Assembly: GCA_019787685.1 (NCBI GenBank) | Contig: JAHNUO010000043.1 | Span: 1-64,000 of the forward strand | DNA: 64,000 nt | From: Chiua virens | Lineage: Eukaryota; Basidiomycota; Agaricomycetes; Boletales; Boletaceae | Direction: 5' to 3' | Shown here: positions 6,013-54,100 of the stretch, one piece after another | How the letters are laid out: the number at the start of each line of letters is the position of its first letter | How positions within the stretch are numbered: position 1 is the stretch's first letter | Program-made: the position numbers and the translations under genes | The notes under the pieces: generated by a model | Database searches by the model: none | What the model was told of the DNA's origin: nothing | Seen by the model: the letters and a program-made list of their open reading frames with translations, nothing else

Positions 6013-9000
6013 TCATGACTTCCAACAAGTAATCCATGACTCTCCAGATAATGAACTATCAATATCAACTTGGAATGCTCCATGAGGAGATATAACCAAG
6101 GAAAGAGGAGGAAGATAAAAGGAACCAAATCTGAGCCAAGGAGCAACCCAACCATAACAAAGATCATGGGAAAAAATCCAGCCATCATGATTGAGAAACT
6201 GACCAAAAGAAAGAAGTTGATGTACCCTCCACACTTTGATAGACTTGTCAGCAGACCCAGAGATAATATGGTCACCATTGGGTGAAAAGGACACTGAGCA
6301 GATATAGGAACCACCATGGCCCTGGAAGGGACCTGCTATAAGGTGACCAGTGGCTGCATCCCAAATCCTGACAGTGCCATCATTAGAGCCAGAGACAATG
6401 TTCTTTCCGTCAGGTGAATAGCCAACAGATGTGACCCAAGATGTGTGCCCCTGGAATGGACTTCCTATGGGCTGACCAGTGGCTGCATCCCAGATCCTGA
6501 TGGTCCTGTCATGAGAGCCAGAGACAATGTTCTTTCCATCAGGTGAATAGCCAACAGATGTGACCCAAGATGTGTGCCCCTGGAATGGACTTCCTATGGG
6601 CTGACCAGTGGCTGCATCCCAGATCCTGATGGTCCTGTCATGAGAGCCAGAGACAATGTTCTTTCCATCAGGTGAATAGCCAACAGATATGACCCAAGAT
6701 GTGTGCCCCTGGAATGGACTTCCTATGGGCTGACCAGTGGCTGCATCCCAGATCCTGATGGTGTTGTCACAAGAGCCAGAGACAATGTTCTTTCCATCAG
6801 GTGAATAGCCAACAGATCTGACATAATGTGTGTGCCCCTGGAATGGACTTCCTATGGGCTGACCAGTGGCTGCATCCCAGATCCTGATGGTGTTGTCATG
6901 AGAGCCAGAGACAATGTTCTTTCCATCAGGTGAATAGCCAACAGATCTGACCACAGATGTGTGCCCCTGGAATGGACTTCCTATGGGCTGACCAGTGGCT
7001 GCATCCCAGATCCTGATGGTGTTGTCACAAGAGCCAGAGACAATGTTCTTTCCATCAGGTGAATAGCCAACAGATGTGACATAATGTGTGTGCCCTTGGA
7101 ATGGACTTCCTATGGGCTGACCAGTGGCTGCATCCCAGATCCTGATGGTGTTGTCATAAGAGCCAGAGACAATGTTCTTTCCATCAGGTGAATAGCCAAC
7201 AGATGTGACAAAATGTGTGTGCCCCTGGAATGGACTTCCTATGGGCTGACCAGTGGCTGCATCCCAGATCCTGATGGTGTTGTCATAAGAGACAGAGACA
7301 ATGTTCTTTCCATCAGGTGAATAGCCAACAGATGTGACAAAATGTGTGTGCCCCTGGAATGGACTTCCTATGGGCTGACCAGTGGCTGCATCCCAGATCC
7401 TGATGGTGTTGTCATAAGAGCCAGAGACAATGTTCTTTCCATCAGGTGAATAGCCAACAGATGTGACCCAATTTGTGTGCCCCTGGAATGGACTTCCTAT
7501 GGGCTGACCAGTGGCTGCATCCCAGATCCTGATGGTGTTGTCATGAGAGCCAGAGACAATGTTCTTTCCATCAGGTGAATAGCCAACAGATGTGACCCAA
7601 TTTGTGTGCCCCTGGAATGGACTTCCTATGGGCTGACCAGTGGCTGCATCCCAGATCCTGATGGTGTTGTCATGAGAGCCAGAGACAATGTTCTTTCCAT
7701 CAGGTGAATAGCCAACAGATGTGACAGAATATGTGTGCCCCTGGAATGGACTTCCTATGGGCTGACCAGTGGCTGCATCCCAGATCCTGATGGTGTTGTC
7801 ATAAGAGCCAGAGACAATGTTCTTTCCATCAGGTGAATAGCCAACAGATGTGACCCAATCTGTGTGCCCCTGGAATGGACTTCCTATGGGCTGACCAGTG
7901 GCTGCATCCCAGATCCTGATAGTCCCATCTATAGAGCCAGAGATAACATGCCTACAATCTGGTGAATAGCCAACAGAGTTCACAGCACCACTATGTCCAT
8001 GCAGGGTATGAACATCTGCTGGCCAATTGGCTGGATGTCCAGTCCTGATTGAAGCATGCTTCAAAAGTCGGTCAAGCCATAGCTTACAAAGTGGTGAACT
8101 GAGGGGGGTCTGGGGCATGGCTGACAGATATAGATGAGGGGTGGATTGTCTGAGTAGGGGTGAGAACACCTGGATGAATCGGGATCCTTCTGAAGCAAGG
8201 GTGCAAATCTCTGAGTCCTAACACCAAGTGTTTAGCATGTCAACTGGTCTCATTCTTTGATCTTACCTTAGGTTGAGCCCAATGTTGAAGGGCAATGCAT
8301 GCCTGCAGGGCAGAAGAAATGGGAGATGCTGATGAGAGGGAAAGGAGGCTGATGACTTCAAGCCAGTAGGGAAAAAACCTTTTGAAGAACAGTGTGATTT
8401 CAGAATTTAAATCTGAGCTGCAGATGGTATGCTGTAGATGGTCCATCCAGTATAGACAAGAGTATGACAGGTGAGGGGGGATGGCCTCATCCACGCAGCT
8501 GGACAAACCAGAGACTTTGTCATTAAGGATTCGGGAGTCAGCAAGGCCACATATGTTGAACTTGAGCATGCGACACATGCACGCAAGTGATGCTTGTCCA
8601 AGAGTGAGAGAATGCTGGGGTAGGAATGGGACATGGAAAGCTGAACTGCGCTTCCCATCACGTAAGAAGTCATAGAAGGACGCATGAAGTGGCCGGACAG
8701 GCTTCCGGTCATCACAAGCCCCATCTAGCAGGGATGCAAGAGATGAAACTATAGCTCGGACGTCTACTGGGTCATCTATCGGAACGTCTTCCAGAATGTC
8801 CATAGTCATCTTCAGGTGTCCATGCAAGAGATCCGAAAGGCATGGGAGTGGGAGTGGTTCCTTGAGAGCGAGTAAGACGCCCATCACCTCTCGAAACCGA
8901 TCTTGTTCAGGTGCCGATTTGAATAGCTGTAGTAGCACGGTCTTGTATAGTTCATCCAATGGGTACCCAGCTTCAGTCCGGCGGGTCTTCAACAGTAGTC

Positions 9001-11326
9001 CGAGTCGGGCAGATCGTCTGAGTCCAATTGACCCAAACCCCTGAATGAACTTGCATGCAGTAGCCGCCCACTGGAAGAGATGTTGGGAATGATGGACAAG
9101 TAGTCGACACCAGTCCTGGTTCGACAAGTCGAGTTCCGAGGACCATTCACCGAGAGAATGTCGGATAAACTTCTCAATGTCTTCGTCGACCATTTGCTCT
9201 GAGATATCACTCATGTGTTTGTGGACCAAGCGGGGACCCGGCGGGAGCTTGGCAAGAATGTCACTTTCGGGGCGAGTCGTGATCAGGAAGCGCAGGTTGA
9301 ATGGGAATGACGTCTCGGTTGCTAGTCTGGAGATGGCAAGTACAAGTTGTTGGCGACTAACCTGGTCACCGCACTCGTCAAGGGCATCGATGACGACCAC
9401 TAGAGGGCCGATAGCCTGGATGTGCTTGCTAGGCTCCATGATGAGTCGTTCCAACTGCTCTGTGGGTACTTCCGACGTGCGAAGTGATCGACTTTCCCCC
9501 ACGACCTTCCACAAGGCGGACTTGTACTCAGCATTGTGGTCGCAGAGGTCCCGTGCAACAGTACTAAACAAATTCGTCGGGTTCCGGCGAGCGACGTCTG
9601 TCCTTGCGAAACAGTACGACGAGACGAGCCTCTTCTGTCCCTCAAACCATCGCGCAATCGAATGAGCCACCGCAGACTTGCCCGATCCTGCGAAACCGGT
9701 GAGAAGACACACTCGTGGAGCATCCTCTGCGGGATTGCTAAGGATCTCACGAAGTTCCCGTAACAAATCGTCCCGGGTCCCTGTAAGACAACCCTTGTCC
9801 TGATCGTGCCTGGCGCCCTTGGCATAAGGCATGTCGTCCAGGTCCTTGTCCTCCACTGCGAACCATATATATGAACGTCCGACTGCAAATCAATGGAGTA
9901 AAGCTTACCGGTGTGCTCGATCGCGTTCATCATACGAACGACTGTGATTCCAGTCTGTAGTCCAACTCCCCGCAAGAAGGCATCTCTGAGTTCTTGAAGC
10001 CTTCTCTGGTAATCGGTGATCTTGGAATTGATATCCGACAATGTGTACCTCGCCAGACGGGTCACTGCGCAAGGCGGTGAATGGGGATGAACACGAAGTA
10101 GTGGATTATCTTACCGAAGCCTTTGTGCTCGGCGTAGTCGCGAATAAAATAGGCGCACTCCATCACCTGTTGGGTCAAGAGCTTAAGAGGCTCCACGTGT
10201 GCCTTGTCTGCCTTCAAGGGATCTGCGTCGTGAACGAATGCTAAAACGTCGCTCATGGTGCCCGCTAAGCGAGTGATCTGCTCGTCGCGATCGTTCTGAT
10301 TTACGAGAACCTGTGTCAAATGTCGCGGCCATCAGGAACAGCACGAGAATACAACATGAGACAAACCAGACCTTGTGTGCAGCTGAGATAACAGACCAGG
10401 CGAGCGAAGTATATGGGTGAATCTACGTGGCAATGAGAAGAAGAGCGGGTAGCGACAAAGTAGTAAGTACCTCTGCGATGCCAGTTACAATCTGGTCAAA
10501 GAGTTTTATCCTCTTCAATAGAACATCCCATGTGGTCGCAAACGTCTGTGCGCTGTTCACAACTTGCGTGACTGTATCGACCGCCGAACTCAGGTGGTCG
10601 ACCACGAGGGGAGTGGGACCCATCGCTTCGACTGCTTGTTTCGCCGTATCGACGGCATCCGCAACCTGACGCTCGTCCGCTTCAAGGGGTTGGCAAGGGA
10701 CGGATGTGAACGTAAATTTCAGTGTGAAATTGGGCCTGGAAGAAATAGCGGTCTTAGAAGGGTCCATAAGGAGAGGTTCTTCGAACACTGAACAAGACTG
10801 TTGTCAGTAGAAAGTGCAATAGGAATTCATCACACCTTTGTTTTTCAACTTCGACATCATTTCCCCGATCGTATAGGTCAGACTTGCAACGGCTTCATCC
10901 TGTTGACCCGGCATGCGGTGGGTCCGGTAAACCTTGGCAACCAGGACAGATGCATCATCTCCACGACTGAGACCATTCACTGAGTTCTCTCACATATATC
11001 AAAGTAAGTCTACTCACAAAGATATTTCTTCGTTCCATAAAATACCATTCTTGTTCTGCTTCATCTTTTTCGTCGTTCGCAACGTATTGCCTAATGAGAA
11101 TTTAATGTAGTATTGCCTTGGCAAAGCAAATCGGGGATTTGATCCACTGGCAGTACGAAGTTCGATGTCTGCAAGAAGAGAAATTCGTACGGAACGGTTT
11201 CCAGAGTTACAATCCGAGTCTCCCACCTGTGATAGTAATGGATTGTGCCCTGGACCCACGATGAGCGAGTCAGCACAACAAATACATTCAGGCAATTATG
11301 CATAGTACATACGTGGTTGGATTCAT
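6013..11326 (-). CDS. NLR1: C2-like / helical / NACHT / 14x WD40 STAND receptor
   Basis: Splicing by eye gives ten exons: 11326-11313, 11249-11227, 11168-11018, 10966-10836, 10787-10471, 10422-10372, 10310-10115, 10064-9909, 9855-8267 and 8217-6013. They total 4833 nt, exactly 1611 codons with the stop. The N-terminus (about 1-110) looks like a C2 domain (SITITDIELR, KNGILWNEE, QQDEA). A helical linker follows, with IHPYTSLAWSVISAAHKV. The NACHT domain has Walker A GFAGSGKS near 400 and Walker B VVVIDALDECG near 500. Fourteen WD40 repeats of 43 residues fill about 950-1552, and a 58-residue tail closes the protein. This is the layout of fungal STAND receptors such as HET-E, which trigger incompatibility or defence on ligand binding. 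The ligand is unknown. Expected cytosolic. The frame is intact. Confidence 0.9.
6193..7998 (-). repeat. WD40 array of NLR1, 14 units of about 129 bp
   Basis: Fourteen direct 43-codon repeats with near-identical DNA. The consensus runs from GHT..V to GQPIGSPFQ and includes SPDGKNIVSGS and IRIWDAATG. Differences concentrate in codons 4, 5, 7, 23 and 25. For repeats 2-13, codons 4-5 and 23 read DW/Y, YS/H, NW/H, NW/Y, HF/Y, HF/Y, HY/C, SV/H, HY/C, SW/H, SW/H, SW/N. The first and last repeats are diverged caps. Fourteen blades fit two seven-bladed propellers. Confidence 0.93.
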
Positions 11327-12180
11327 TATTTCAAGTGACGTGTGATGAGCGAATATACGAGTTGGCAAGGAGGGATGCTGAGTGTATGAGAAGGATCCTC
11401 TGAGAACCGATCAACCAGCGCCGCCGACTACTAAATGGGTACAACGTGGGTCGTGTTCTATTCCTAGCCTGAGTGCATGGTCGTGACAATGCGCACACAC
11501 AACATGAGGAATATGGCTATCTAAACAGCGAAGACATAGTTGCATCCAAGGCAATACTACAGGGGGGTGAACAACACAGACCCGGTGCTACGTAGGAGGA
11601 ACGACTCGAAGTTGAGCTCAACAGGTCTGGCGCTTCCGAGTCGGTCTCGAGCCTCAATCATCCACGAATCTGTCCTTTGCCATGGAATTTGACGTCGGGG
11701 TTTTCAGCGGGACATGAGACGAGCGTCACTAAACAATACTAGTGCGAGAGTCAACACTTTAGTTGAAGATCTACCACTGGCAAACGACGGGGGAAACGAT
11801 CGGTGTCGCAGACAGCTGCACGTTTTACCCGAGCCCAGCTCTTAGGGTCCATGTAGCAAACATTTGTGCATATAGAAGCGTGAACGACAAACCGGAATCT
11901 GAATAAGGGCAGTCTCTTGGGAGAAGTCACGGTAATGTTAACGATGTATGGAGTATGTACCTGGGCAATGAGTGGTGTGTACTCCTCGTTCTGCATATCT
12001 AAACATTCCTTTTCCGCAGCGCACGTACGTGAGTCATCCCATTATGCCTCGTGGTCACCGCGATCTCGACGATACCGGCTTGTCCCTTTGATTGCTGGTG
12101 TTGCTCTGAAAGGGTTTCAGTTTCACCACATCCGAGTCCACCGCTTTCGTCTGTCCTCCCTTGGGGTCACTATCAGCCAT
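11327..12180 (-). other. Region upstream of NLR1 with a possible small gene
   Basis: About 850 bp between the NLR1 start and the F-box 3' side. On the minus strand an ATG at 12180 opens 35 codons (MADSDPKGGQT to QRDKP, to 12076) followed by a GTATCG donor. In copy 2 the same frame is kept despite several substitutions and a clean 3-bp deletion (one residue fewer in the SNTSNQ stretch). In copy 3 the ATG is deleted. In-frame indel behaviour hints at coding, but downstream exons cannot be joined convincingly (MQNEEYTPLIAQ near 12000 is a candidate). Otherwise this is NLR promoter DNA. Confidence 0.25.
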
Positions 12181-12591
12181 AGACTCGGACCGGGTGTGTG
12201 TTTGCTTGGCTGAAGGGGCCCAATATGTATTGAGTTCATCGTAGGTTTTCAGCTATCTGCAAGGTTCATCCTTGACCTTTTGCAGGACGCTGTGGACATG
12301 AGGAGGGGTGTCCTCCAAAGTTGGTGGTGGGCAGTGTGACCAGTCGTTCTTGGCAAGAACGGGCATTCGGAGGGCATTGTTCGCCAGCGTTCTAGAAAAT
12401 GGTGATTCTGAAGAGGGCGCAAAGGGCCTGTTTTGGATCAAACAAATCATCGCGATCAAGCCCTGCCATGGAAAGTGTCTCTTGTTTCGTGCTGCGTAGT
12501 GAGGACCACACGCAAGCGGAAGTTACGTTTATGCAGTCTTTCGAGGAAATGGAGATTACAGATCAGCCGATCACATTGCAATTTCGCCTTG
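12181..12591 (-). other. Region 3' of F-box gene, copy 1; possible extra exon
   Basis: A minus-strand frame of about 68 codons (12459-12253) ending in HSVLQKVKDEPCR is kept open in all three copies and could be a further exon or the 3' UTR of the F-box gene. I could not join it to the F-box frame with good splice sites. No other gene is seen. Confidence 0.3.
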
Positions 12592-13914
12592 TTATACAGT
12601 ACAATTCAAGTCGTGCACTTCTGACCATTCCCCATCCACTAAATCCAGATCTGTCCCAAGGATATGTAAGTAAGTGAGGCGAGAGTGAGGACCAAGTCTG
12701 TCACGAAGAATGGGTTGGATGTCTGAAAAAGGCATCTTTGGTTCATTGTCATCCCGGCAGACTGGACATTCCACTACCAACGATTGCAGATTGGTGAGAT
12801 GAGCAATGCCATCCAATGTCGGAGGAAGGGTCTAAGGGTGACCAATTAGGATGAGAAGTATTAGGCAGAGGCAGGCAACTGACCTCTGCATCTTCCCTAA
12901 ATCCATAGTGATTAATTTCGAGCTTGAGTGAACGGAGGTGACGAAAGTTAGACCATGCAGGAGAAGCGAAGATGAATCGGAGAATATCATCTGTTGGCCC
13001 ATCTATTATTGAATCCACAAAGTCGAAGATGGAAATCGATAGCATCTGGATAGAGTCGGGTAGCCTTTCAAGGATGTCACGCATCTGAATTACGTGCAAG
13101 TCCCAGGGATGCTCGCCAGGGCACCGACAATTACCACCGAGGACTAATCCTGTGAGAGCAGACTGGGGGAGGAAATCGATGTCGAGGAGAATATCAAGAG
13201 GTGCGTCAAGGGTGCGTAGATTGCGAGCATCTACGGATACCATGGGTCGGAAACGCCCAACACAAAACCTTACCTCCAGGAGGGAGAATCTGAGCTTGTC
13301 CGTCGTTTCAGGTTTAACACCCGGAGGGCTCAGAAGGAATTCGCAAGAGGAAAAACGTAGTTTCTCGAGCAATGGCAGAGACGCCATGGTACGCCAATGG
13401 TTGACGTCCACGAGACAATCCCAAAGTTCGAGTTGGTGTATGTTCGTCATGAGTGAAATGGAAGAGAGGTGACGGTTAGGAGTAAGTCCCCTTGTCCAGC
13501 TGTCTGCGTGTCTATTGTTCAAGCGGAGGACCTGCACACTTTTGGCAAGGGTCAGAGAGGCTGGGTGGTTTGCGGCAATCTGCCGAAACAATGTCTGGCC
13601 AAAGAAAGAGACCATATTAGGGTTGGCATGAGAGGGAATCTCAATGCTACAGAACTCGAGGACTCTGAACATGTGAGGAAGGCAAACATTGGCAAAGAAT
13701 TTGCAAGTACGACGAAGTCTGGCCAACATTCGAAGGTCCCAAGTAAGATGTTGGAATATAAGGAGGTATATCTCATTTGGTATGATAGGTAAGGTTTTGT
13801 CCCCGCTTCGTCGCTCTGGGGCTGGGGATGGAATAAGATAGGAGTCAAGAGCAGAGAGAGAGCCAACTCACTGGAGCACACAAAGAATCTGAAAAGTGAC
13901 ATGTCTGTCGACAT
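12592..13914 (-). CDS. F-box protein with leucine-rich C-terminal part, copy 1
   Basis: Exons 13914-13872, 13821-12884 and 12831-12592 sum to 1221 nt, i.e. 406 residues and a stop. Intron 1 has a perfect GTGAGT donor, and intron 2 runs from GTCAGT to CTTAG. The N-terminus carries an F-box-like segment (LPIIPNEIYLLIFQHLTWD, then LARLRRTCKFFANVC) near residues 20-65. Irregular leucine-rich stretches follow (LPLLEKLRFSSCEFLL, HLRSLKLEINHYGF, LTNLQSLVVECPVC). F-box proteins link substrates to SCF ubiquitin ligases through SKP1, with the LRR part binding the substrate. That role is inferred. Agaricomycetes have very many such genes. It is divergent with the kinase gene, 96 bp apart. The stop at 12592 may be extended by an unseen exon. 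Confidence 0.8.
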
Positions 13915-14010
13915 GAATCAAGCCGACGCGATCACGTGCAAGATGCACGACTTACATAATCTGAACAACTATCAAACCCACATTGTCTGTTTCTGTTTTT
14001 GCCAGAGACG

Positions 14011-15076
14011 ATGGAGGTCACGTTTGGTGGAAAGTACAGACTCGAGGAAGAAATCGCCAACGGTGGCTGTGGTCAGTCTCTCTCTGCTGTCCTCGTCTAC
14101 CCCCTCATGTACAAACACAGGCTCTGTCTTCCTCGGCGTACACACCATAGCGGGCAAGGAAGTCGCTATCAAACTCGAACCTGCCATACCCCGCTCCCTC
14201 ACATCTCCCCTTCGCCAAGAATCCAAGGTATACAAGTCTCTCATGAGTGAGCCAGGCCATCGTCAATGTCATCGACTTTGGTCTCGCACGTCGCTTCAGG
14301 GATTCTAGGACAGGCGAACACCTCCCTACAAAAAGGAAGGAAAGCACGGTGTAGGCACCAGCCTTTTTGCTAGTTTAAACGCTCATCGCGGTGTCGGTGC
14401 GTATAACGTCACTTGAACGATTTATATCCGCTCATACTACCGTTACAGAATGTGCTCGTCGTGATGACCTCGAGTCCCTCGCGTATATGCTCATTTACTT
14501 CCTCCGCGGGACCCTACCCTGGAGAAAGCTACGTGCACCAACGGTATCACAAAAATGGGACCTTATTTTGCAAGCCAAGTTGGACGCTATTGGCCCTTTA
14601 TTACCTCAGTCATCACCGGATCTTGTTTATCGAGAACAATTGGAAAAGGAGGAACAACTGCTTCGCAATGATGCGCCTTCATTGCAAGACAATCTGGAAC
14701 ACGAGGAAACACATTCCATTGTCGAAAAATCTAGACCTTTCCCCTCAATCGCCGTCCGCGAGACTCCGCGTCATCCCCGTACTCGCTCACAGCCCCGTAC
14801 TCCTATACGTTTCTGTTCACGAGCCCCCTCTCCAATTCCTCCCGAATCCCCCACACCTTCTCCAATACGTCACCGCCATCACCGTAGAGAATCCTCTACT
14901 TTTTTACCATTCAGACGCTCATCAAGACCCTGCCTACTTGCCACCACCCACTATTCCGATGACTGCCACCCTCCCCGTCGAATTCACCCTCTTTCTCACC
15001 CATTCCTTATCTCTTTCCTTTACCGACCTTCCCGACTATGATGGTCTACACGACATGTTCCGCAATTTGGGTTGTC
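14011..15076 (+). pseudogene. Casein kinase 1-like, copy 1, catalytic core deleted
   Basis: The start at 14011 and the first intron match the intact copy at 47900. The N-lobe is present (GGKYRLEEEI, then GKEVAIKLEPA with the ATP-binding Lys). After KSLM, near 14246, the sequence jumps to the codons just before IVNVIDFGL. This removes about 310 bp that encode the hinge, an intron and the HRDVKPAN catalytic loop. Further down an extra base in a T-run near 14900 shifts the Pro/Ser-rich region. At 15076 the frame is fused to the DNA upstream of the next mago copy. It cannot encode an active kinase. Confidence 0.85.
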
Positions 15077-15198
15077 TTAAAGGTACTGTAGCAAGTACCA
15101 GAGCAAATGAGATTTCTCTTTGATCCGGCAAAACCCGGATTTTTGCGATTTAGTCAATCCCAAGAACGCGTTCGAAACATTTTCAACATTGATCCACC
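15077..15198. other. Tandem junction: kinase 3' end fused to mago upstream DNA
   Basis: The kinase coding sequence up to the FRNLG(R/C) codons is followed directly by about 120 bp leading to the mago ATG. The same junction recurs at 32099/32100. In the last copy the kinase continues normally (49286-49458), which dates the junction to the first duplication event. The 120 bp must act as the mago promoter, if any. Confidence 0.8.
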
Positions 15199-15942
15199 AT
15201 GAGCTCGCATGACAATGTCCCATTCTACATGAGGTATGTACATCTGACTGGAACAATACGCAGGGTGCTGATAGCTTTTTAGATACTAGTGTGTTGACAT
15301 CGTTCAGGTGGCATCAACACTCACCCTTTGATGCAGCACGGGCCACTCAGGCAAACACGGACACGAATTCCTTGAATTCGAGTACTCGCATGGTCGTTTG
15401 AGATATGCAAACAACTCAAATTACAGAAACGACAGTCTTATCCGCAAAGAGAGTGCGTCGCTTATACGGCCCACTGCGACCCGTGTCTCACGACGCCTTT
15501 TACAGTGTAGGTTGGCCCTCTAGTGATCAAGGAACTAAAGCGCATTGTTGAGGCGAGTGAAATCACAAAGTAAGCATATAGTCCTTGAGCTTTTTGTTAT
15601 CATGTTCATCCCCCATGCAGGGAAGATGACACGAATTGGCCCAAAAAGAACATTGTCGGAAAGCAAGAGCTTGAAATTCGTATCGGGAATGACCACATCA
15701 CCTTTGAGGTTTTGTTTCACAGATATGTGAGGAACCCTGCTCGTGATTGGTAGACTGCAAAAATCGGCTCCCTGGTTGATATCCAAGACAGTGAAGACTC
15801 GGAAGGACTGCAGGTGTTCTATTACTTGGTGCAAGATTTGAAGGCATTCGTTTGTATTTCCCCTTTACGCATTCGCCAACCCTTTCCCTAGTGTGTTGTT
15901 TTCTCTCTAATTTCTCTCCACTTCAAAATCAAGCTGATTTAA
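15199..15942 (+). pseudogene. mago nashi-like (exon junction complex core), copy in unit 2, nonsense codon
   Basis: Six exons match Mago nashi, the small EJC core protein that pairs with Y14/RBM8[75 protein letters not shown] and [11 protein letters not shown] are visible in order. In exon 3 the first complete codon after the splice is TAG (15508-15510) where copy 3 has CGG, so the product would stop after about 50 residues. The last intron donor is GC here (GCATTC) and GT in copy 3. The conserved LRYY at the exon 1/2 border is reduced to M-S. A pseudogene. A functional mago must exist elsewhere in the genome. Confidence 0.82.
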
Positions 15943-16502
15943 AATAGCCATCGATCAACATGTTTTTGTCACGCTGCATTGTATCGGGACTTGCCTTCAT
16001 CTCTCGTTGCATGAATGAATCGTGTAATTGGTCCGGTTGCGCAAGATAGTGCTGTCTGTCATCTTTGAGGTAAACGTCTTGCGTTAAGATTGTTAGCATC
16101 GACAGTGACAGTGTTTTTTAGACAAATAATAAAGCTGTTTCTTGTCTGCGTTATCCAGTTGCTGCGTGATAGATGTGATCGTCGATGAGTAGGTTATATT
16201 CGCTCAAAACTAGTCGGAGAATGTTAAGTTCAATCCCGTACAGCACATCATCTGTAATTCTTTGTGACATGCCGGTAGTATGATCCGCCCAGACCCCACC
16301 AACACCTTATGTTTGCCGTCCAGCGCTATAACACTGATCCATGCTAGTGACCAAGCTGTCATCTCTAATCACGTCGATCCTTTGTTGCATTCCAAAAGTA
16401 GGTAACATGGTGGCCCGGTTACTGTCACGAACTCCATAGTCGGAGTCTTTGCCAACTTTACGTCCCACATTTAGGATCACACTGCACTACCAGTCAGTCT
16501 CG
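15943..16502. other. Convergent intergenic region between mago and gene A, unit 2
   Basis: About 560 bp between convergent 3' ends. No conserved open frame. Copy 3 has an extra block of about 30 bp (near 33445-33475) in the corresponding place. I see nothing else in it. Confidence 0.55.
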
Positions 16503-17145: not shown

Positions 17146-17538
17146 GTTAACAGTGGCGAGGTATGAGTTTCGAATGAAGAGATTGTTTTGATGATAAAAA
17201 CTTTCCGCGATATAATGAAGCCATATATACGATAGACGACATGAAGTCGACGTTGTGGTAATGTGGACCAGTGTTTGGTCTATTGTTCTGCAGGTCCGGA
17301 CTGCACGCGTTGACCATTCTTGTCCACTGTGGACTCGTAAAACATGTGGCACCGCTTTTGAGCAAACAAGGTCCACTTTGGCTAGACACTATTCTCCGAT
17401 CACGCCTCTTCATCTCTGTCCACCGTTCCTTGGGTTCTTGTGGCCTGGACCTGCAGGACGTGTCTATTTCATGGGCGATCGCGTTGTCGCCGTCACCAGA
17501 CCGGCCCTGCGTGGCAAATGCGTCAGCCTGCCCTCAGG

Positions 17539-30603: not shown

Positions 30604-30698
30604 GAATCAAGCTCACGACGCGATCACGTGCAAGACAACTTACATAATCTGAACAACTATCAAACTCACTGTGTCTGTGTCTGTTTTTGCCAGAGACG

Positions 30699-32099: not shown

Positions 32100-32221
32100 T
32101 TAAAGGTACAGTAGCAAGTACCAGAGCGAGTGAGATTTCTCTTCGATCCGACACAACCCGGATTTTTGCGATTTAGTCAATCCCAAGAACGCGTTCGAAA
32201 CATTTTCAACATTGATCCACC

Positions 32222-44914: not shown

Positions 44915-46464
44915 TATTTCAAGTGACGTGTGATGAGCGAATATACGAGTTGGCAAGGAGGGATGCTGAGTGTATGAGAAGGATCCTCTGAGAACCGATC
45001 AACCAGCGCCGACTACTAAATGGGTACGACGTGGGTCATATTCTATTCCTAGAACGCGCACACACAACATGAAGAATATGGCTATCTAAAAAGCGAAGAC
45101 ATAGTTGCATCCAAGGCAATAATACTACAGGAGGGATGAACAACACAGACCCGGTGCTACGTAGGAGGAACGACTCGAAGTTGAGCTCAGCAGGCCTGGC
45201 GCCTCCGAGTCGGTCTCGAGCCTCAATCGAGCCACCATCCACGGATGTGCCCTTTCGCATCCCCCCCAGTCATAAAGATTGCAATTTCCGGTCGTCGTGT
45301 CCTGGTAAGACTCGGATTAGCCCAATGGGTTGCACAAAATTGTATCTCTCGCGACGTCATACGTCTTGTGCTCTACGCCGTTCACCTCGTTCGCGCCAGC
45401 GCCGTCGACGGACTGGGGTCTGTACAAAATAATACGTCCGTGAAAGCACTAGTGGCATTCGATGAACAAATAGAGGTGGGACACTATATTCAAAGTCCAG
45501 GGCAGTCGATCGAGGAAACACCCAGGAGGGAATTAGAGCGGCGGTGAGTTTTCCATAGAATTTGACGTCGGCGTTTTCAGCGGGACATGAGACGAGCGTC
45601 ACTAGATAATACTAGTACGAGAGTCAACGACTCGGATAACGATCTACCACTGGCAAGCGACGATGGGGAAACGATCAGTGTCACAGACAGCTGCATCTAT
45701 TACCCGAGCCCAGCTCTTAGGGTCCATGTAGCAAACATTTGTGCATATAGAAACATGAACGACAAATCGGAACCCTAATAAGGGCAGTCTCCTGGGATAA
45801 GTATGTGATGTTACGGTGAGACAACGATGTATGGAATATGTACCTGGACAATGAGTGGTGCGTACTCCTCGTTCTGCATATCTAAACATTCCTTTTCCGC
45901 AGCGCACGTACGTGAGTCATCCAATTATGCCTCGTGGTCACGGCGATCTCGACGATACCGGCTTGTCCCTTTGATTACTGGTGTTGCTCTGAAAGGGTTT
46001 CAGTTTCACCACATCCGAGTCCACCGCTTTCGTCTGTCCTCCTTGGCGTCGTGGACTCGGTCGGACCGGGTGTGTTTACTTGGCTGAAGGGGCCCGATAT
46101 GTATTGAGTTCGTCATAGGTTTTCAGCTATCTGCAAGGTTCATCCTTGACCTTTTGCAGGACGCTGTGGACATGAGGGGGGATGTCCTCCAAACTTGGTG
46201 GTGGGCAGTGTGACCAGTCGTTCTTGGCAAGAATGGGCACTCGGAGGGCATTATTCGCCAGCGTTCTAGAAAATGGTGATTCTGAAGAGGGCGCAAATGG
46301 CCTGTTTTGGATCAAACAAATCATCGCGATCAAGCCCTGCCATGGAAAGTGTCTCTTGTTTCGTGCTGCGTAATGAGGACCACACGCAAGCGGAGGTTAC
46401 CTTTATGCAGTCTTTCGAGAAATGGAGATTACAGATCAGTCGATCACATTGCAATTTCGCCTTG
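44915..46464. other. Region between NLR3 and F-box, unit 3, with a copy-specific block
   Basis: Counterpart of 11327-12591, but with about 285 extra bp at 45252-45545. That block has a plus-strand open frame of about 100 codons (45245-45547) ending in PRRELERR followed by GGTGAG, so it could be an exon lost from the other units. The product is not recognised. The MADSDPKGG candidate start is deleted near 46040. The 68-codon frame ending KVKDEPCR is at 46333-46127. Confidence 0.3.
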
Positions 46465-47775
46465 TTATACAGTACAATCCAAGTCGTGCACTTCTGACCA
46501 TTCCCCATCCACTAAATCCAGATCTGTCCCAAGGATATGTAAGTAAGTGAGGCGAGAGTGAGGACCAAGTCTGTCACGAAGAATGGGTTGGATGTCTGAA
46601 AAAGGCATCTTTGGTTCGTTGTCATCCCGGCAGACTGGACATTCCACTACCAACGATTGCAGATTGGTGAGATGAGCAATGCCATCCAATGTCGGGGGAA
46701 GGGTCTAAGGGTAATCAATTAGGATGAGAGGTATTAGGCAGAGGCAGGCAACTGACCTCCGCATCTTCCCTAAATCCATAGTGATTAATTGTGAGCTTGA
46801 GTGAACGGAGGTGACGAAAGTTAGACCATACAGGAGAAGCAAAGATGAATCGGAGAATATCATCTGTTGGCCCATCTAATATTGAATCCACAAAGTCGAA
46901 GATGGAAATCGATAGCGTCTGGATAGAGTCGGGTAGCTTTTCAAGGATGTCACGCATCTGAATTATGTGCAAGTCCCAGGGATGCTCGCCAGGGCACCGA
47001 CAATTGCCACCGAGGACTAATCCTGTGAGAGCAGACTGGGGGAGGAAATCGATCTCGAGGAGAATATCAAGAGGTGCATTAAGGGTGCGTAGATTGCGAG
47101 CATCTACGGATACCATGGGTCGGAAATGCCCAACACAAAGCCAGACCTTCAGGAGGGAGAGCCTGAGCTTGTCCATCATTTCGGGTTTAACACCCGGAGG
47201 GCTCAGAAGGAATTCGCAAGAAGTAAAGCATAGTTCCTCAAGCAATGGCAGAGACGCCATGGTGCACCAATGGTCGACGTCCACGAGACAATCCCGAAGT
47301 TCAAGTTGGTGTATGTTCGTCATGAGTGAAATGGAAGAGAGGTGACGGTTAGGAGTAAGTCCCCTTGTCCAGCTGTCTGCGTGTCTATTGTTCAAGCGGA
47401 GGACCCGCACACTTTTGGCGAGGGTCAGAGAGGCTGGGTGGTTTGCGGCAATCTGCTGAAACAATGTCTGGCCGAAGAAAGAGACCATATTAGGGTTGGC
47501 ATGAGAGGGAATCTCAATGCTACAAAACTCGAGGACTCTGAACATGTGAGGAAGGCAAACATTGGCAAAGAATTTGCAAGTACGACGAAGTCTGGCCAAC
47601 GTTCGAAGGTCCCAAGTAAGATGTTGGAATATAAGAAGGTATATCTCATTTGGTAGGATGGGTAATGTTTTGTCCCCGCTTCGTCGCTCTGGGGCTGGGG
47701 ATGGAATAAGATAGGAGTCAAGAGCAGAGAGAGAGCCGACTCACTGGAGCACGCAAAGAATCTGAAAAGTGACAT
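46465..47775 (-). CDS. F-box protein with leucine-rich C-terminal part, copy 3
   Basis: Exon plan as copy 1. The first ATG of copies 1 and 2 is TTG here (47787-47785), but the ATG four codons later (47775) is in frame and gives a protein only four residues shorter. The F-box-like segment LPNEIYLLIFQHLTWD and LARLRRTCKFFANVC are intact, and the donor of intron 1 is GTGAGT. LRR-like stretches show more replacements (LELRDCLVDVDHWC, LLEELCFTSCEF) than between copies 1 and 2. Stop at 46465. Confidence 0.75.
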
Positions 47776-47899
47776 GTCTGTTGACAAGAATCAAGCTCAA
47801 GGTTTAAATTCACGACGCGATCACGTGCAAGATGCACGACTTACATAATCTGAACAACTATCAAACCCACTGTGTCTGTTTCTGCTTTTGCCAGAGACG

Positions 47900-49458
47900 A
47901 TGGAGGTCACGTTTGGTGGAAAGTACAGGCTCGAGGAAGAAATCGCCAACGGTGGCTGTGGTCAGTCTTTCTTTGCTGTCCTCGTCTACCCCCTCACGTT
48001 CAAACGCAGGCTCTGTCTTCCTCGGCGTACACACCATAGCGGGCAAGGAAGTCGCTATCAAACTCGAACCTGCCATACCCCGCTCCCTCACATCTCCCCT
48101 TCGCCAAGAATCCAAAGTATACAAGTCTCTCATGGGTGGGCCAGGCGTACCCTGGATCATGTACTCGGGCAAGCAAGGGGACTACAACGTCATGGTCATC
48201 GATCTTCTCGGGCCCTCCTTGGAGGATCTCTTCAAAGTCTGCAACAGACACTTTTCTCTCAAGACCGTTCTTCTCCTAGCCGATCAGCTTGTACGTCTAT
48301 TTCCTTGTCTCCACCTCGACGCCACATCAATATTAATTTATCCACGCTCATTTTTCGTTGCCTAGTTGTCGCGCCTTGAATTTATTCATTCCCGTTCATT
48401 TATACATCGCGACGTAAAACCTGCCAATTTCGTCATGGGCCTGCCTTCTTCTCCGACCACCTCCATCGTCAATGTCATCGACTTTGGTCTCGCACGTCGC
48501 TTCAGGGATTCTAGGACAGGCGATCACCTTCCTTACAAACAAGAAGGAAAGCATGGTGTAGGCACCAGCCTTTTCGCTAGTTTAAACGCTCATCGCGGTG
48601 TCGGTGCGTATAACGTCGCTTGAACGATTTATATCCGCTCATACTACCGTCACAGAATGTGCTCGTCGTGATGACCTCGAGTCCCTTGCGTATATGCTCA
48701 TTTACTTCCTCCGTGGGACCCTACCCTGGAGAAAGCTACGTGCACCAACGGTATCACAGACATGGGACCTTATTTTGCAGGCCAAGTTGGACGCTATTGG
48801 CCCTTTATTACCTCAGTCATCACCGGATCTTGTTTATCAAGAACAATTGGAAAAGGAGGAACAACCGCTTCGCAACGATGCGCCTTCGTTGCAAGACAAT
48901 CTGGAACACGAGGAAACACATTCTGTTGTCGAAAAATCTAGGGCTTTCCCCTCAATCGCCGTCCGCGAGACTCCGCGTCATCCCCGTACTCGCTCACAGC
49001 CCCGTACTCCTATACGTTCCTGCTCACGAGCCCCTTCTCCAATTCCTCCCGAATCCCCCACACCTTCTCCAATGCGTCACCGTCATCACCGTAGAGAATC
49101 CTCTGCTTCTTACCATTCAGACGCTCATCAAGACCCTGACCCCTACTTGCCACCACCCACTATTCCGATGACTGCCACCCTCCCCGTCGAATTCACCCTC
49201 TTTCTCACCTATTCCTTGTCTCTTTCCTTTACCGACCTTCCCGACTACGATGGTCTACGCGACATGTTCCGCAGTTTGGGTCGTCGTTCGGGTGTTCGCT
49301 ACCCTGACGACTCTATACCTGATGATAGGACCGCAACCGAATTTGATTGGGTGCGCAAGGCAAGAAAGGGTGCTGATCACCACCGCACTCATCGAGTTCG
49401 TGTATGTGAGGCATGTAACGCTGCCGCTCATGGGGTTACTGAGAGGCGGTGGCGCTAG
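47900..49458 (+). CDS. Casein kinase 1-like protein kinase, intact copy with unusual insert
   Basis: Exons 47900-47960, 48010-48290, 48366-48603 and 48656-49458 sum to 1383 nt, 460 residues plus stop. The CK1 landmarks run in order: [118 protein letters not shown] and PDYDGLRDMFRSLG. Deviations: KPAN instead of KPDN, and TSLFAS where CK1 has TARYAS in the activation segment. A Pro/Ser/Arg-rich insert of about 110 residues separates two C-lobe helices. Such divergent CK1-like genes are expanded in Agaricomycetes. Activity is uncertain. The 3' end lies beyond the tandem array. Confidence 0.82.
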
Positions 49459-51141
49459 TTGGGGACGCATGTGGGGACTGTTCGTCGACGTCGTCAAGCT
49501 GTCCTGCTGCTTGCTGGGCTACCGGTCAATACCGTGGAGTACCGTTTCTTATGAGGGACCCGTTCGGTATCTCAGTATATCATCGCTGTGGTTGCCCTCC
49601 TTGTTGGAAGGGCGTCAGGGTGAGTTGATGGTTGGTCCTGTTGTGTTGGTCACTGACCTTGTAATAATCGGTTGTTGCAGTCCTCACTCGGGCGAGTAGC
49701 TCCCCGACACTATACCCTGGGATTGTCTCCAGACGATCTTCAAACCGCATTCCCTGGTCCGTCTTTGGCTTTCTGAGACGTCTCTCTTTCCCCCACTCGA
49801 CCCCTCCCACCACCCATGGTCGCTGTTGTGTCCCTGTATTCCTCCCCATTTCCATTTATCCTCGTTTTAAAGTGCTTACAAGATATATCCACAACAACTT
49901 GAACGTAGGTTTGTCATCATTTTGGCTGTGTGCACGCTTTTTAGGTTTTACTGTTTACTGCTGTTCTGCGTCATAGGGTAATACGTTGTTGTAATGGTTT
50001 CCGATCTTTCTTATCACGGTTCGTCATCCTGTGTTTTTTGGGTTTAGGTTTTCTCCTTCAAGCGACGGGCGTTGTTTATTGACTTGTTATAATACTTGTT
50101 GTATCTGCGGCAAGACATAGAATTGCGTCAAACATTCAAACTCAAATGTGTGTACCTCAATCGATCTGACGTTGAAACCGTACTCGAAGCAGCTCGTTCG
50201 TCCATCCTACAGACCAGCACGTTTGATGCTGTGACTAAAGGAACTTGCGGAACAGTCCTCCTATATGGATGGCTGTTGACCTAGACATCGGAGTGGTGAA
50301 GTAGAGGCTGTGAACATAGCCATGACGGGTTGCTGCCTTTACCCCATAGTTGGAGGCAATACTAGAGGCACTTGTGTGTCATCAGACGCGATATCAAACA
50401 GGGCTTAGACTGACTCCTACGTCTGTGGCAAGTGTTGCATCCGTGTCGATCACGCGGCTTCATGCCACCAGATTCCAGATTATCTCGTTCATCGACACGC
50501 CCTTTACACAATGGGACACGTCCATGATTGTAGGGCTCAGCACTAGCATTCCCTCACCTCGGGATACCATCCTCCATGGCGTCGCGCTCGTGCATACACG
50601 CTCGCCAGTCGCGACGGTACACGGTGCACCACGATGCTATGTGCGTGATGGATTGCCCTGGGGTACTCACTCGCTTGACAGGCCCGCCGAGGCGCCCAGT
50701 GTCCTGCACGTGTCGGAGTCGCCCACGCAATACGGTTTTCCCTCTGCCGGCGAATGCGCTCCAAGTTCATGAAGCGCACGCCAGAGGAGACTGAGCCACT
50801 CGAAAGTCGGGGACTCGGATGGAAACAAGGCGATGAAAAAAAACTTGAAGCGCGTGCAGGATGTGATGACGTCGTGTCTACCGCGGGCACCAATTCAAGT
50901 GGGTGGAATCAAGGTATTGTTGAGCTATGCGGACCATGTGAGATTTAGATGCGACATGCTCGAGGTGTACATGGTCTGTAGGTCTCTCAATGCAAGCATC
51001 TGGGTCTAGAGCACCATCACAGTGAGATCCAAATAGACATGACAGAGATACCAGTAGATAATGACAGGTGATACCTTGCATTTCAGTGAGATGGTAGGGT
51101 ATGTAGGATAGAAAAACAATGCAGACATGAAAAGATACTAA
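49459..51141. other. Single-copy flank between kinase and NLR4
   Basis: About 1.7 kb without a recognised gene. The first few hundred bases should hold the kinase 3' UTR and contain a possible intron (GGTGAG near 49619 to TTGCAG near 49680). From about 51060 the sequence becomes similar to the 3' flank of NLR1-3. The open frames in between are short and have no family features I can name. Confidence 0.45.
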
Positions 51142-54100
51142 TTATGACTTCCAACAAGTAATCCATGACTCTCCAGATAATGAACTATCAATATCAATTT
51201 GGAATGCTCCATGAGGAGATATAATCAAGGAAAGGGGAGGAAGGTAAAAGGAACTAAATCGAAGCCAAGGAGCAACCCAACCATAACAAAGATCATGGGA
51301 AAAAATCCAGCCATCATGATCAAGAAACTGACCAAAAGAAAGAAGTTGATGTACCCTCCACACCTTGATAGAGTTATCAGCAGACACAGAGATAATATGG
51401 TCACCATTGGGTGAAAAAGATACTGAGTAGATATAGGAACCACCATGGCCCTGGAAGGGACCTGCTATAAGGTGACCAGTGGCTGCATCCCAGATCCTGA
51501 TGGTGTTGTCATGAGAGCCAGAGACAATGTTCTTTCCATCAGGTGAATAGCCAACAGATGTGACCAAATCTGTGTGCCCCTGGAATGGACTTCCTATGGG
51601 CTCACCAGTGGCTGCATCCCAGATCCTGATGGTGTTGTCATGAGAGCCAGAGACAATGTTCTTTCCATCAGGTGAATAGCCAACAGATGTGACCAGAGAT
51701 GTGTGCCCCTGGAATGGACTTCCTATGGGCTGACCAGTGGCTGCATCCCAGATCCTGATGGTCTTGTCCCAAGAGCCAGAGACAATGTTCTTTCCATCAG
51801 GTGAATAGCCAACAGATGTGACAAAATGTGTGTGCCCCTGGAATGGACTTCCTATGGGCTCACCAGTGGCTGCATCCCAGATCCTGATGGTCTCGTCAAA
51901 AGAGCCAGAGACAATGTTCTTTCCATCAGGTGAATAGCCAACAGATGTGACCCAATGTGTGTGCCCCTGGAATGGACTTCCTATGGGCTGACCAGTGGCT
52001 GCATCCCAGATCCTGATGGTGTTGTCACCAGAGCCAGAGACAATGTTCCTTCCATCAGGTGAATAGCCAACAGATGTGACACACTCTGTGTGCCCCTGGA
52101 ATGGACTTCCTATAAGCTGACCAGTGGCTACATCCCAGATCCTGATGGTGTTGTCATGAGAGCCAGAGACAATGTTCTTTCCATCAGGTGAATAGCCAAC
52201 AGATGTGACCAGAGATGTGTGCCCCTGGAATGGACTTCCTATGGGCTGACCAGTGGCTGCATCCCAGATCCTGATGGTCTTGTCATCAGAGCCAGAGACA
52301 ATGTTCTTTCCATCAGGTGAATAGCCAACAGATGTGACCCAATTTGTGTGCCCCTGGAATGGACTTCCTATGGGCTGACCAGTGGCTGCATCCCAGATCC
52401 TGATGGTGTTGTCATCAGAGCCAGAGACAATGTTCTTTCCATCAGGTGAATAGCAAACAGATGTGACCACAGATGTGTGCCCCTGGAATGGACTTCCTAT
52501 GGGCTGACCAGTGGCTGCATCCCAGATCCTGATGGTGTTGTCAAGAGAGCCAGAGACAATGTTCTTTCCATCAGGTGAATAGCCAACAGATGTGACCCAA
52601 TCTGTGTGCCCCTGGAATGGACTTCCTATGGGCTGACCAGTGGCTGCATCCCAGATCCTGATGGTGTTGTCCCAAGAGCCAGAGACAATGTTCTTTCCAT
52701 CAGGTGAATAGCCAACAGATGTGACCCAATGTGTGTGCCCCTGGAATGGACTTCCTATGGGCTGACCAGTGGCTGCATCCCAGATCCTGATGGTGTTGTC
52801 ATCAGAGCCAGAGACAATGTTCTTTCCATCAGGTGAATAGCCAACAGATGTGACAGAATCTGTGTGCCCCTGGAATGGACTTCCTATGGGCTGACCAGTG
52901 GCTGCATCCCAGATCCTGATGGTCCTGTCATTGGAGCCAGAGACAATGTTCTTTCCATCAGGTGAATAGCCAACAGATGTGACAGAATGTGTGTGCCCCT
53001 GGAATGGACTTCCTATGGGCTGACCAGTGGCTGCATCCCAGATCCTGATGGTCCCATTTCCAGAGCCAGAGACAACATGCCTACAATCTGGTAAATAACC
53101 AACAGAGGTCACAGCACCACTATGTCCATGCAGGGTATGAACATCTGCTGGCCAATTGGCTGGATGTCCAGTGCTCATTGAAGCATGCTTCAAAAGTTGG
53201 CCAAGCCACAGCTTACAAAGTGGTGAATTGAAGGGGGTCTGGGGCATGGCTGACAGATATAGATGGGGGGTGGATTGTCTTAGCAAGGGTGAGAACACCT
53301 GGATGAATCGGGATCCTTCTGAAGCAAGAGTTGAAATCTCTGAGTCCTAACACCAAGTTTTTAGTAAGTCAACTGGTCCCATTGTTTGATCTTACCTTAG
53401 GTTGAGTCCAATGTTGAAGGGCAATGCATGTCTGTAGGGCAGAGGAAATGGGAGATGCTGATGAGAGGGAGAGGAGGCTGATGACTTCAAGCCAGTAGGG
53501 AAAACAGCTTTTGAAGAACAATGTGATTTCAACACTTAAGTCTGAGCTGCAGCTGGTATGTTGTAGATGGTCCATCCAGTACAGACAGGAGTATGACAGG
53601 TGAGGGGGAATGGCCCCATCCACACAGCCAGACAAATCAGAGATTTTGTCGTTAAGGATCCGGGAGTCAGTAAGGCCACATATGTTGAACTTGAGCATGC
53701 GACGCATGCACGCAAGTGATGCTTGTCCAAGAGTGAGGGAATGCTGGGGTAAGAATGGGACATGGAAAACTGAACTGCGCTTGCTGTCACGTAAGAAGTC
53801 ATAGAAGGAGGCATGAAGTGGGCGGACAGGCTTCCGGTCATCGCAAGCCCCATCCAGCAGGGATGCAAGAGATGAAACTATAGCTCGGACATCTACTGGG
53901 ACATCTATTGGAACGTCTTCCAGAGTGATCTTCAGGTGTCCACGAAAGAGATCCGAAAGGGAAGGAAGTGGGAGTGGTTCCTTGAGAGCGAGCACGACAC
54001 CCATTACCTGTCGGAACCGATCTTGTTCAGGCGCCGATTTGAATAGCTGTAGCAGCACGGTCTTGTATAGCTCGTCCAATGGGTAGCCAACTTCAGTCCG

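What the first reader, a model, noticed from the sequence alone, without database searches (positions are those of the whole stretch)
6193..53127. Framework-frozen, hypervariable WD40 repeats in four receptors
In 56 repeats of 43 codons the DNA is nearly invariant except at codons 4, 5, 7, 23 and 25. There, first- and second-base changes swap D/N/H/S/Y/E, W/F/Y/S/V/L/C/E and Y/H/D/C/N/W/L/F/G. Few synonymous changes accompany them. Such positions in WD blades sit on the ligand-facing surface. In Podospora HET-E/HNWD genes the same kind of pattern reflects diversifying selection with repeat shuffling. The sets differ almost wholly between NLR1, 2, 3 and 4.
Basis: partly seen in the sequence, partly recalled or inferred. 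Interest (0 to 1): 0.88.

Follow-up and report, generated by a model that had tools for sequence, protein, structure and literature searches.

The report
CpG-free shuffling immune-sensor repeats in mushroom
A bolete mushroom carries a cluster of NOD-like-receptor genes whose sensor is built of 14 blades, nearly identical except at five codons that are predicted to face the ligand and likely diversify by selection plus copying of loop variants between blades, and whose sensor exon is almost free of CG steps, likely because methylation aimed at repeats has removed them.

Summary
Four tandem NLR genes (Chiua virens, Boletaceae) each carry 14 WD40 blades. In 47 clean blades, codons 4, 5, 7, 23 and 25 show 115 replacement and 0 synonymous departures from the commonest codon; the other 38 codons show 38 and 18. 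In 131 blades of 11 paralogues: 352:2 and 112:56. No five-residue signature is shared between any two of NLR1-4. The positions lie at the d-a loop, start of strand a, and b-c loop (AlphaFold2); four equal the selected codons of Podospora NWD genes, so the kind is known. New here: (1) alleles NLR4/C9a share 0 of 12 signatures though their flanks are 96.0-99.6% identical, while a neighbouring NLR with divergent blades has no allelic change at these codons; (2) a recent pair differs at 16 of 55 variable but 2 of 418 framework codons, fitting part-blade tracts; (3) the sensor exon is a CpG desert: 0-3 CpG against 89-110 expected in 16 of 16 genes read, with 400-500 bp shoulders, near-normal CpG in NACHT exons and in WD40 controls, and T instead of C almost only before G. 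Methylation, ligand and function are untested.

The parts
8267..9882 (-). NLR1 NACHT exon (P-loop GFAGSGKS)
   Evidence: Pfam NPHP3_N and NACHT over cut-off; exon ends from GT..AG introns
9909..11168 (-). NLR1 N-terminal exons (11168-11018, 10966-10836, 10787-10471, 10422-10372, 10310-10115, 10064-9909): C2-like region then helical region; first exon with the start codon not resolved
   Evidence: Open 872-aa join of exons together with the NACHT exon; AF2 of the paralogous protein P0001 shows strands between residues 7 and 137, then helices; C2 over the Pfam cut-off in P0002, not in P0001
6013..8217 (-). NLR1 WD40 exon, 14 blades
   Evidence: 14 PF00400 stretches
22711..24915 (-). NLR2 WD40 exon, 14 blades
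24941..26533 (-). NLR2 NACHT exon (matched part)
39598..41799 (-). NLR3 WD40 exon, 14 blades (blade 12 one codon short)
41825..43417 (-). NLR3 NACHT exon (matched part)
51142..53346 (-). NLR4 WD40 exon, 14 blades; allele of C9a on the other haplotype
53372..54955 (-). NLR4 NACHT exon (matched part)
5944..8494 (.). NLR1 CpG desert over the WD exon and both shoulders
   Evidence: bounds from the list of CpG-free stretches; array 1 CpG against about 105 expected
22593..25192 (.). NLR2 CpG desert
   Evidence: array 0 against about 105
39322..42076 (.). NLR3 CpG desert
   Evidence: array 1 against about 106
50961..53650 (.). NLR4 CpG desert
   Evidence: array 1 against about 108
1429..49285 (.). 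Tandem segmental duplication (unit about 17 kb, long pieces mostly 94-95% identical) that carries NLR1-3
   Evidence: self-alignment

Best explanation
These are tandem NACHT-WD40 receptor genes of the fungal NLR kind whose 14-blade sensor, predicted to form two seven-bladed propellers, is diversified at five loop codons per blade, likely by positive selection on loop variants that short gene-conversion tracts would carry between blades, gene copies and haplotypes, while the framework is homogenised and its CpG steps are likely removed by repeat-directed methylation and deamination. Shown directly: replacement-only change at the five codons, framework homogeneity across paralogues that differ much more outside the array, complete signature difference between alleles, changes mostly confined to part of a blade in a recent pair, and a lack of CpG, of the C-to-T kind, centred on the array. 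Inferred: that the loops bind a ligand, that binding triggers NACHT-driven assembly and an N-terminal (C2-like plus helical) cell-death or defence output, that the unit of transfer is gene conversion, that the two contigs are the two haplotypes, and that DNA methylation is the agent of the CpG loss. A likely consequence is that an array free of CpG no longer offers sites to the genome's own repeat defence, so near-identical coding repeats can persist and keep exchanging loops.
For: Selection: 352:2 replacement:synonymous departures at the five codons against 112:56 elsewhere, 131 blades of 11 genes; event counts 40:4 against 33:21 in 120 blades, Fisher p = 0.0009. Alleles NLR4/C9a: 41 of 65 variable codons differ, all replacements; 19 of 494 framework codons differ; 98.6% identical upstream, 96.0% in NACHT, 99.6% in the spacer. 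Control alleles C9_877/C43_104: 5 residue differences in a 732-aa WD exon, 0 of 5 at the five positions. Concerted evolution: NLR1 against NLR4 is 79.5% upstream, 90.9% in NACHT, 77.9% downstream but 94.8% in the array; about 5% of blade variation lies between genes. Exchange: C32_296 and C32_312 show no base difference upstream, in NACHT (one single-base length difference) and in blades 1-2, then differ in each of blades 3-13. Part-blade tracts: C9b/C32_278, 99.4% upstream and NACHT, 16 of 55 variable and 2 of 418 framework codons differ in blades 2-12; whole-blade replacement would bring more framework differences (p = 0.0041 with donors from the same two genes, 0.0008 or less with three wider pools). 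CpG: arrays 0-3 against 89-110 expected in 16 of 16 genes read, 300 codon-usage shuffles each never below 88; pyrimidine-ending codons before G end in C 5 and T 1672 times in WD exons, 355 and 336 in NACHT exons, and are alike before other bases; codon 24 is GAT in 14 of 18 blades where the next base is G and in 1 of 124 otherwise; desert shoulders about 500 bp upstream and 400 bp downstream; two copies of a dispersed repeat of this genome differ at 70 sites, 46 of them CpG in L058 and TpG or CpA in L066.
Against: No methylation, expression, ligand or death phenotype was measured. Blades and genes share ancestry and recombine, so counts are not independent, and no tree-based dN/dS was run. Repeat number is the same (14) in all 11 intact close genes, which does not speak for frequent unequal crossing-over. 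Loop changes of one base (C9b/C32_278 blades 2, 3, 5, 9) could be point mutations rather than tracts. The divergent arrays (mean DNA identity between blades 68-77%) are as CpG-free as the homogeneous ones, so present-day identity is not needed for the desert. Of four dispersed-repeat copies measured, two have near-normal CpG (L058 0.92, L064 0.93) and two low (L065 0.56, L066 0.52), so repeats are not all purged, and none is as empty as the WD exons. The direction of change between L058 and L066 rests on no outgroup. Three CpG made by loop changes (GAC-GAG in NLR4 blade 10, C9a blades 3 and 10) still stand. pTM of the WD model is 0.49 and the five models range from 51 to 71 in mean pLDDT, so the two-propeller arrangement is weakly supported by the model itself.
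Confidence: 0.72

Rival explanations
1. The CpG desert is not a mutation footprint but comes from a CpG-free founder blade amplified by concerted evolution, or from codon preference.
For: The framework consensus has 0 CpG and blades are copies of one another; one 129-bp founder could lack CpG by luck.
Against: The spacer (0-2 against 12-14 expected) and the 3' part of the exon (0-3 against 11-14) are not copies of the blade and are depleted too, as is the end of the NACHT exon; five paralogous WD exons with 55-66% internal identity are equally CpG-free, although NLR1 agrees with three of them at only 42-52% of fourfold sites in NACHT; C-ending codons are normal before bases other than G; codon 24 changes where codon 25 begins with G.
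Confidence: 0.18
2. CpG deamination (RIP-like hypermutation) is itself the main source of the variable loop residues, as was proposed for RIP as a contributor in Podospora.
For: Codon 5 (TGG, CAG, rare CGG) and codon 23 (CAT, TGT, rare CGT) include both deamination products of arginine CGG and CGT.
Against: Pairwise differences at the five codons are 29% transitions against 71% in the framework; the commonest swaps (GAT/CAT, TGG/TCT, ACA/AGA) need transversions.
Confidence: 0.1
3. A mutator aimed at the loop codons, rather than selection, makes the diversity, in the manner of a diversity-generating retroelement.
For: Third bases of codons 4, 7 and 23 are almost frozen (T, A, T), so change there is at first and second bases.
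Against: Frozen third bases also follow from few founding mutations spread by copying; largely the same positions vary in database relatives from other genera. A template repeat or reverse transcriptase near the genes was not searched for.
Confidence: 0.06
4. The blade differences are assembly or phasing artefacts of near-identical repeats.
For: C127 is an indel-bearing duplicate of C32_312; published work warns that short-read assemblies of such arrays fail (PMC12222747, abstract and sections 17-19 seen). The reads behind this assembly are unknown to me.
Against: 11 of 12 close copies have open frames with exactly 14 blades; chimeras would not confine differences to replacement changes at five codons; C9 is a 1.96-Mb contig.
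Confidence: 0.05
5. The receptors act in heterokaryon incompatibility (allorecognition) like Podospora HET-D/E/R, rather than against parasites.
For: Same build of NACHT plus highly similar WD40 blades and the same selected positions; alleles differ wholly in signature.
Against: No HET domain in the Pfam scans; N-terminus C2-like plus helices; two unlike alleles sit together in one assembly; no partner gene known.
Confidence: 0.3

Closest known systems
Podospora anserina NWD/HNWD genes het-d, het-e, het-r
   Same: NACHT plus C-terminal WD40 array with near-identical repeats, concerted evolution within and between genes, positive selection at the same four blade positions, double seven-bladed propeller predicted (PMC1805685 and PMC4986451 passages, PMC2873952 abstract, PMC12222747 abstract and sections 17-19)
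   Different: Here codon 4 is a fifth hypervariable position, all 11 intact close genes have exactly 14 blades (Podospora numbers vary), blades hardly cluster by gene (5%; in Podospora mostly by gene), the N-terminus is not a HET domain, and the exon is CpG-free; Podospora RIP favours CpA, and its WD regions were reported with CA/TA ratios like the rest of the genome
Agaricomycete NLRs with C2 plus Goodbye-like N-terminus (PMC9815663, passages seen)
   Same: C2-like then helical N-terminal region before NACHT; that double domain is reported as specific to Agaricomycetes
   Different: No Goodbye-like Pfam match in the nine proteins scanned; the passages seen do not treat CpG content
WD-40 repeat protein of PDB 2YMU
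   Same: Solved chain titled a highly repetitive propeller structure; best sequence and fold match
   Different: Not shown to be an NLR; that it is bacterial is recalled, not from a call
CpG-directed repeat decay in Basidiomycota (RIP-like/MIP-like; PMC4352252, PMC4014442, PMC13297926, passages seen)
   Same: C-to-T at CpG in repeats, ascribed to methylation and deamination with Masc2/DNMT1-type enzymes
   Different: In the passages seen it is described for transposons and for scattered SNPs in Rhizoctonia, not as the near-complete purge of one exon of a receptor family

Membership tests
Fungal NLR (STAND, NACHT-WD40) | NACHT nucleotide-binding domain | tested here: met
   Pfam NACHT and NPHP3_N over cut-off
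Fungal NLR (STAND, NACHT-WD40) | C-terminal superstructure-forming repeat domain | tested here: met
   14 PF00400 stretches
Fungal NLR (STAND, NACHT-WD40) | N-terminal effector or signalling domain | tested here: inconclusive
   Strands then helices in AF2 of P0001; C2 over cut-off in 4 of 9 relatives scanned (P0002, P0015, P0018, P0043), not in P0001; activity not testable
NLR with high internal repeat conservation (HIC) | Repeats over 85% identical over at least 100 aa (definition in PMC4986451) | tested here: met
   Median blade identity 0.91 in NLR1, 0.88 in NLR4 over 13 anchored blades
Podospora NWD/HNWD-type arrays | Positive selection at the d-a and b-c loop positions (their codons 7, 9, 25, 27) | tested here: met
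   Codons 5, 7, 23, 25, plus 4; by counts, not by a tree-based test
Podospora NWD/HNWD-type arrays | Concerted evolution within and between genes | tested here: met
Podospora NWD/HNWD-type arrays | Repeat-number polymorphism | tested here: not met
   14 blades in 11 of 11 intact close genes; one assembly only
Podospora HNWD genes | N-terminal HET domain | tested here: not met
   No HET match in Pfam scans of the exons and of nine relatives
Podospora HNWD genes | Heterokaryon incompatibility | not testable with these tools
   needs fusions or crosses
CpG-directed repeat mutation (RIP/MIP-like) | C-to-T at CpG on repeats, TpG/CpA gain, spread into flanks | tested here: met
CpG-directed repeat mutation (RIP/MIP-like) | 5-methylcytosine on the repeats and a responsible methyltransferase | not testable with these tools
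   Three PF00145 matches in the genome; the DNMT1-RFD search was silent in the genome and in all 14 controls, so uninformative

The most novel reading that the evidence does not exclude
An immune-sensor exon that has become invisible to its own genome's repeat defence: repeat-directed CpG methylation and deamination has kept the WD40 sensor exon of this whole NLR family free of CpG over a span in which half or more of the fourfold sites have changed, removing new CpG that loop changes create, so near-identical coding repeats can stay homogeneous, unmutated and free to trade single loops; the same process may feed Trp, Cys, His and Gln into the binding loops from arginine CGN codons.
Probability: 0.45. 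Interest if true: 0.82.

Novelty: new variant of a known kind. Interest (0 to 1): 0.68.

Why it matters
Highly similar coding repeats should be a prime target of fungal repeat defences, yet many fungal NLR sensors keep them. A CpG-purged sensor exon offers a concrete, testable answer to how such repeats survive, and would link genome defence to receptor diversification. Matched alleles in one assembly, whose flanks agree and whose sensors do not, would let the rate and tract length of loop exchange be measured directly. The largely shared variable positions in relatives from Boletus to Heterobasidion suggest a general agaricomycete design rather than a Podospora peculiarity.

Tried and rejected
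Whole-blade swapping as the only route of change: rejected for the C9b/C32_278 pair. RIP-like deamination as the main source of loop diversity: rejected by the transition fraction. Covariation between neighbouring blades: weak and scattered. Free assortment of loop residues: not met; codons 4 and 5 are strongly linked (z = 10.3), 23 and 25 less (z = 4.1), and the two loops pair less freely than chance (91 combinations, 102.6 expected, sd 2.7). DNMT1-RFD search: silent also in all controls, no conclusion. TPR arrays as a second kind of tandem coding repeat: only three weak matches; the two loci taken have CpG ratios of 0.96 and 1.00. Placing of contig C32: its partner at 180 kb is C45, so C32 is not simply the other haplotype of C9. 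C46:5000 proved to be a dispersed repeat with 17 further copies at 95-99%, so it did not help to place C46. A fold search of the P0001 model, two of three protein-database searches and one genome search were left unused. DNA of other fungi for the CpG test could not be had.
Full report
What it is. The window is the first 64 kb of a 143-kb contig (C43) of a 48.3-Mb assembly. Protein relatives identify the organism as the bolete Chiua virens: the best hits bear its name and lie on contigs of 317,632, 1,961,657 and 2,399,986 bases, the lengths of C32, C9 and C5 here. Four genes on the - strand encode an N-terminal region, a NACHT domain and a WD40 exon. For NLR1, seven exons joined at GT..AG introns give an open 872-aa stretch before the WD exon. 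NLR1-3 lie in tandem segments of about 17 kb, mostly 94-95% identical. The genome has 12 close copies (NACHT at least 89% identical): four in the window, two on C9, four on C32, one each on C46 and C127. C127 is an indel-bearing duplicate of C32_312 and was dropped, leaving 11 genes.

The observation. All 11 have 14 blades, at 43-codon spacing but for a 42-codon blade in NLR3 and the step to blade 14. In 131 blades (2-13; NLR3 blade 12 left out) the five named codons hold 8, 13, 4, 14 and 8 amino acids and 352 replacement against 2 synonymous departures from the commonest codon; the other 38 codons hold 112 and 56, many of them in the special 3' end of blade 13. Window genes alone: 115:0 and 38:18. 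Counting each codon state once by minimum spanning tree (blades 2-12) gives 40:4 against 33:21 (Fisher p = 0.0009) for all 11 and 29:1 against 13:9 (p = 0.001) for the window. I fitted no tree-based codon model, since the blades recombine. 102 distinct signatures occur in 132 blades; none is shared between any two of NLR1-4.

Where the codons lie. AlphaFold2 of the NLR1 WD exon (12 sequences; most blades pLDDT 80-94, residues 290-340 about 50-66; pTM 0.49) puts codons 4 and 5 in the d-a loop, 7 second in strand a, and 23 and 25 in the b-c loop, in 13 of 13 blades. The top fold and sequence match is 2YMU, a highly repetitive propeller. That fourteen blades make two seven-bladed propellers is inferred from this and from the published het-e model (PMC12222747, section 17). 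In the six database relatives with the most similar blades (ranked), the five most variable positions are exactly these five in P0060 (Heterobasidion); all five are within the top six in P0068 and the top eight in P0079; four of them lead in P0037 (Boletus edulis); P0032 and P0047 agree partly.

Alleles. C43 looks like the other haplotype of C9: C43:60-63 kb matches C9:916-919 kb at 97%, 49.3-51 kb matches 928-930 kb at 94%, and an NLR at C43:104 kb pairs with C9:877 kb. NLR4 and C9a are therefore taken as alleles. Upstream they are 98.6% identical, NACHT 96.0%, spacer 99.6%, 3' part 96.0%, but 41 of 65 variable codons differ, all by replacement, and 0 of 12 signatures are shared. The neighbouring pair C9_877/C43_104, whose blades are divergent, has 14 base differences in 2196 and 5 residue changes, none at the five positions. 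By offset of shared matches C46 carries the probable allele of C9b, so the haplotypes would hold two and about five copies; this is inference from contigs.

How variants move. Outside the array NLR1 and NLR4 are 79.5% (upstream), 90.9% (NACHT) and 77.9% (downstream) identical, inside it 94.8%. About 5% of blade variation lies between genes; no permutation of 2000 reached it, so it is small but not zero. C32_296 and C32_312 show no base difference upstream, in NACHT (one single-base length difference) and in blades 1-2, then differ in each of blades 3-13 and downstream, which marks an exchange point inside the array. C9b and C32_278 (99.4% upstream and in NACHT) differ at 16 of 55 variable and 2 of 418 framework codons in blades 2-12. 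Replacing the eight changed blades by whole donor blades would bring 10 to 13 framework differences on average; p runs from 0.0041 to below 0.0005 over four donor pools. 18 of 20 changed half-blades occur elsewhere as exact DNA. Part-blade conversion fits; point changes are possible in the four blades with a single loop change.

The CpG desert. A dinucleotide check made as a control gave an unexpected result. In 636 windows of 400 bp the median CpG ratio is 0.97, and every window below 0.2 falls in four blocks, the four WD exons. In all 16 family genes read whole, the array has 0-3 CpG against 89-110 expected from base composition; 300 codon-usage shuffles for each gene never gave fewer than 88 (usage taken from the NACHT exons that the script found, 6 of 11 asked). 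NACHT exons of the nine genes where that script found them have ratios of 0.78-1.03. Five of the 16 arrays are divergent, with 55-66% internal identity. All 15 family loci profiled (several are haplotype pairs) show the fall near the end of the NACHT exon; the one other NLR profiled, L038, does not. Three WD40 stretches outside the family, picked from 150 listed matches, have ratios 1.13, 1.20 and 0.88; L038 has 1.06. Averaged over the window genes, CpG stays near zero for about 500 bp upstream and 400 bp downstream of the array and is back to normal by about 800-1100 and 400 bp.

Direction of the loss. In WD exons of the 11 genes a pyrimidine-ending codon before G ends in C 5 times and T 1672 times; in NACHT exons 355 and 336; before other bases the C share is 0.64 and 0.59 (NACHT found in 14 of 15 genes). 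CpA and TpG are in excess. Codon 24 is GAT in 14 of 18 blades where codon 25 begins with G (GAC 3, AAT 1) and in 1 of 124 other blades; shared descent may reduce these to about three events, and the three GAC blades (NLR4 10, C9a 3 and 10) still hold the new CpG. A dispersed repeat, transposon-like by its copy number, has a copy (L066) that differs from a 95%-identical one (L058) at 70 sites, 46 of them CpG in L058 and TpG or CpA in L066. So CpG decay of repeats likely occurs in this genome, but of four such copies two have near-normal CpG (0.92, 0.93) and two low (0.56, 0.52), none as empty as the WD exons. Since NLR1 and three divergent paralogues agree at only 42-52% of fourfold sites in NACHT, the loss has probably continued rather than happened once. 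Three DNA-methylase matches exist. Published passages describe CpG-biased decay in basidiomycetes and ascribe it to methylation (PMC4352252, PMC4014442, PMC13297926). Searches of the open library listed no paper that I could see to treat CpG loss in fungal NLR sensor exons; subscription papers are not held.

Mechanism and standing. Known from Podospora: WD40 sensors of this build control recognition, evolve in concert and are selected at the same positions (PMC1805685, PMC4986451, PMC2873952, PMC12222747; passages, abstracts or named sections). The present genes are a new variant: fixed 14 blades, a fifth position, near-free mixing of blades between genes, a non-HET N-terminus and a CpG-free sensor exon. 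Function as immune or allorecognition receptors is inferred. The loop residues do not come mainly from CpG decay (29% transitions against 71% in the framework).

Noticed in passing
   Followed up: yes
L066 against L058 (G000:C2:118655-120155 and C46:5000-6500): Two copies of a dispersed repeat differ mostly by CpG against TpG/CpA (46 of 70 sites), a sign of CpG-directed decay in this genome.
   Followed up: partly
P0001 (JVU11DRAFT_11731, on a contig of C32's length): The public gene model ends just after the NACHT exon (931 aa) and leaves out the WD40 sensor, so database searches miss the array.
   Followed up: no
3736-4434 (+); equal-length ORFs at 20433 and 37322: ORF matching Questin_oxidase (Pfam E 2.9e-12), repeated with the NLR segments.
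   Followed up: no
12752-13798 (-): F-box-like ORF (just under the Pfam cut-off) between NLR copies.
   Followed up: no
58034-65867: Tandem stretches 68-70% alike beside the cluster on both C43 and C9; one holds a sugar-transporter ORF (58595-59122).
   Followed up: no
G000:C127:9346-10880: Small contig with an indel-bearing duplicate of the C32_312 array; probably an assembly leftover.
   Followed up: partly
blade codons 4 and 5: Residues at codons 4 and 5 are strongly linked (mutual information z = 10.3; 26 pairs seen, 41 expected), as if the d-a loop moves or is selected as one unit.
   Followed up: partly
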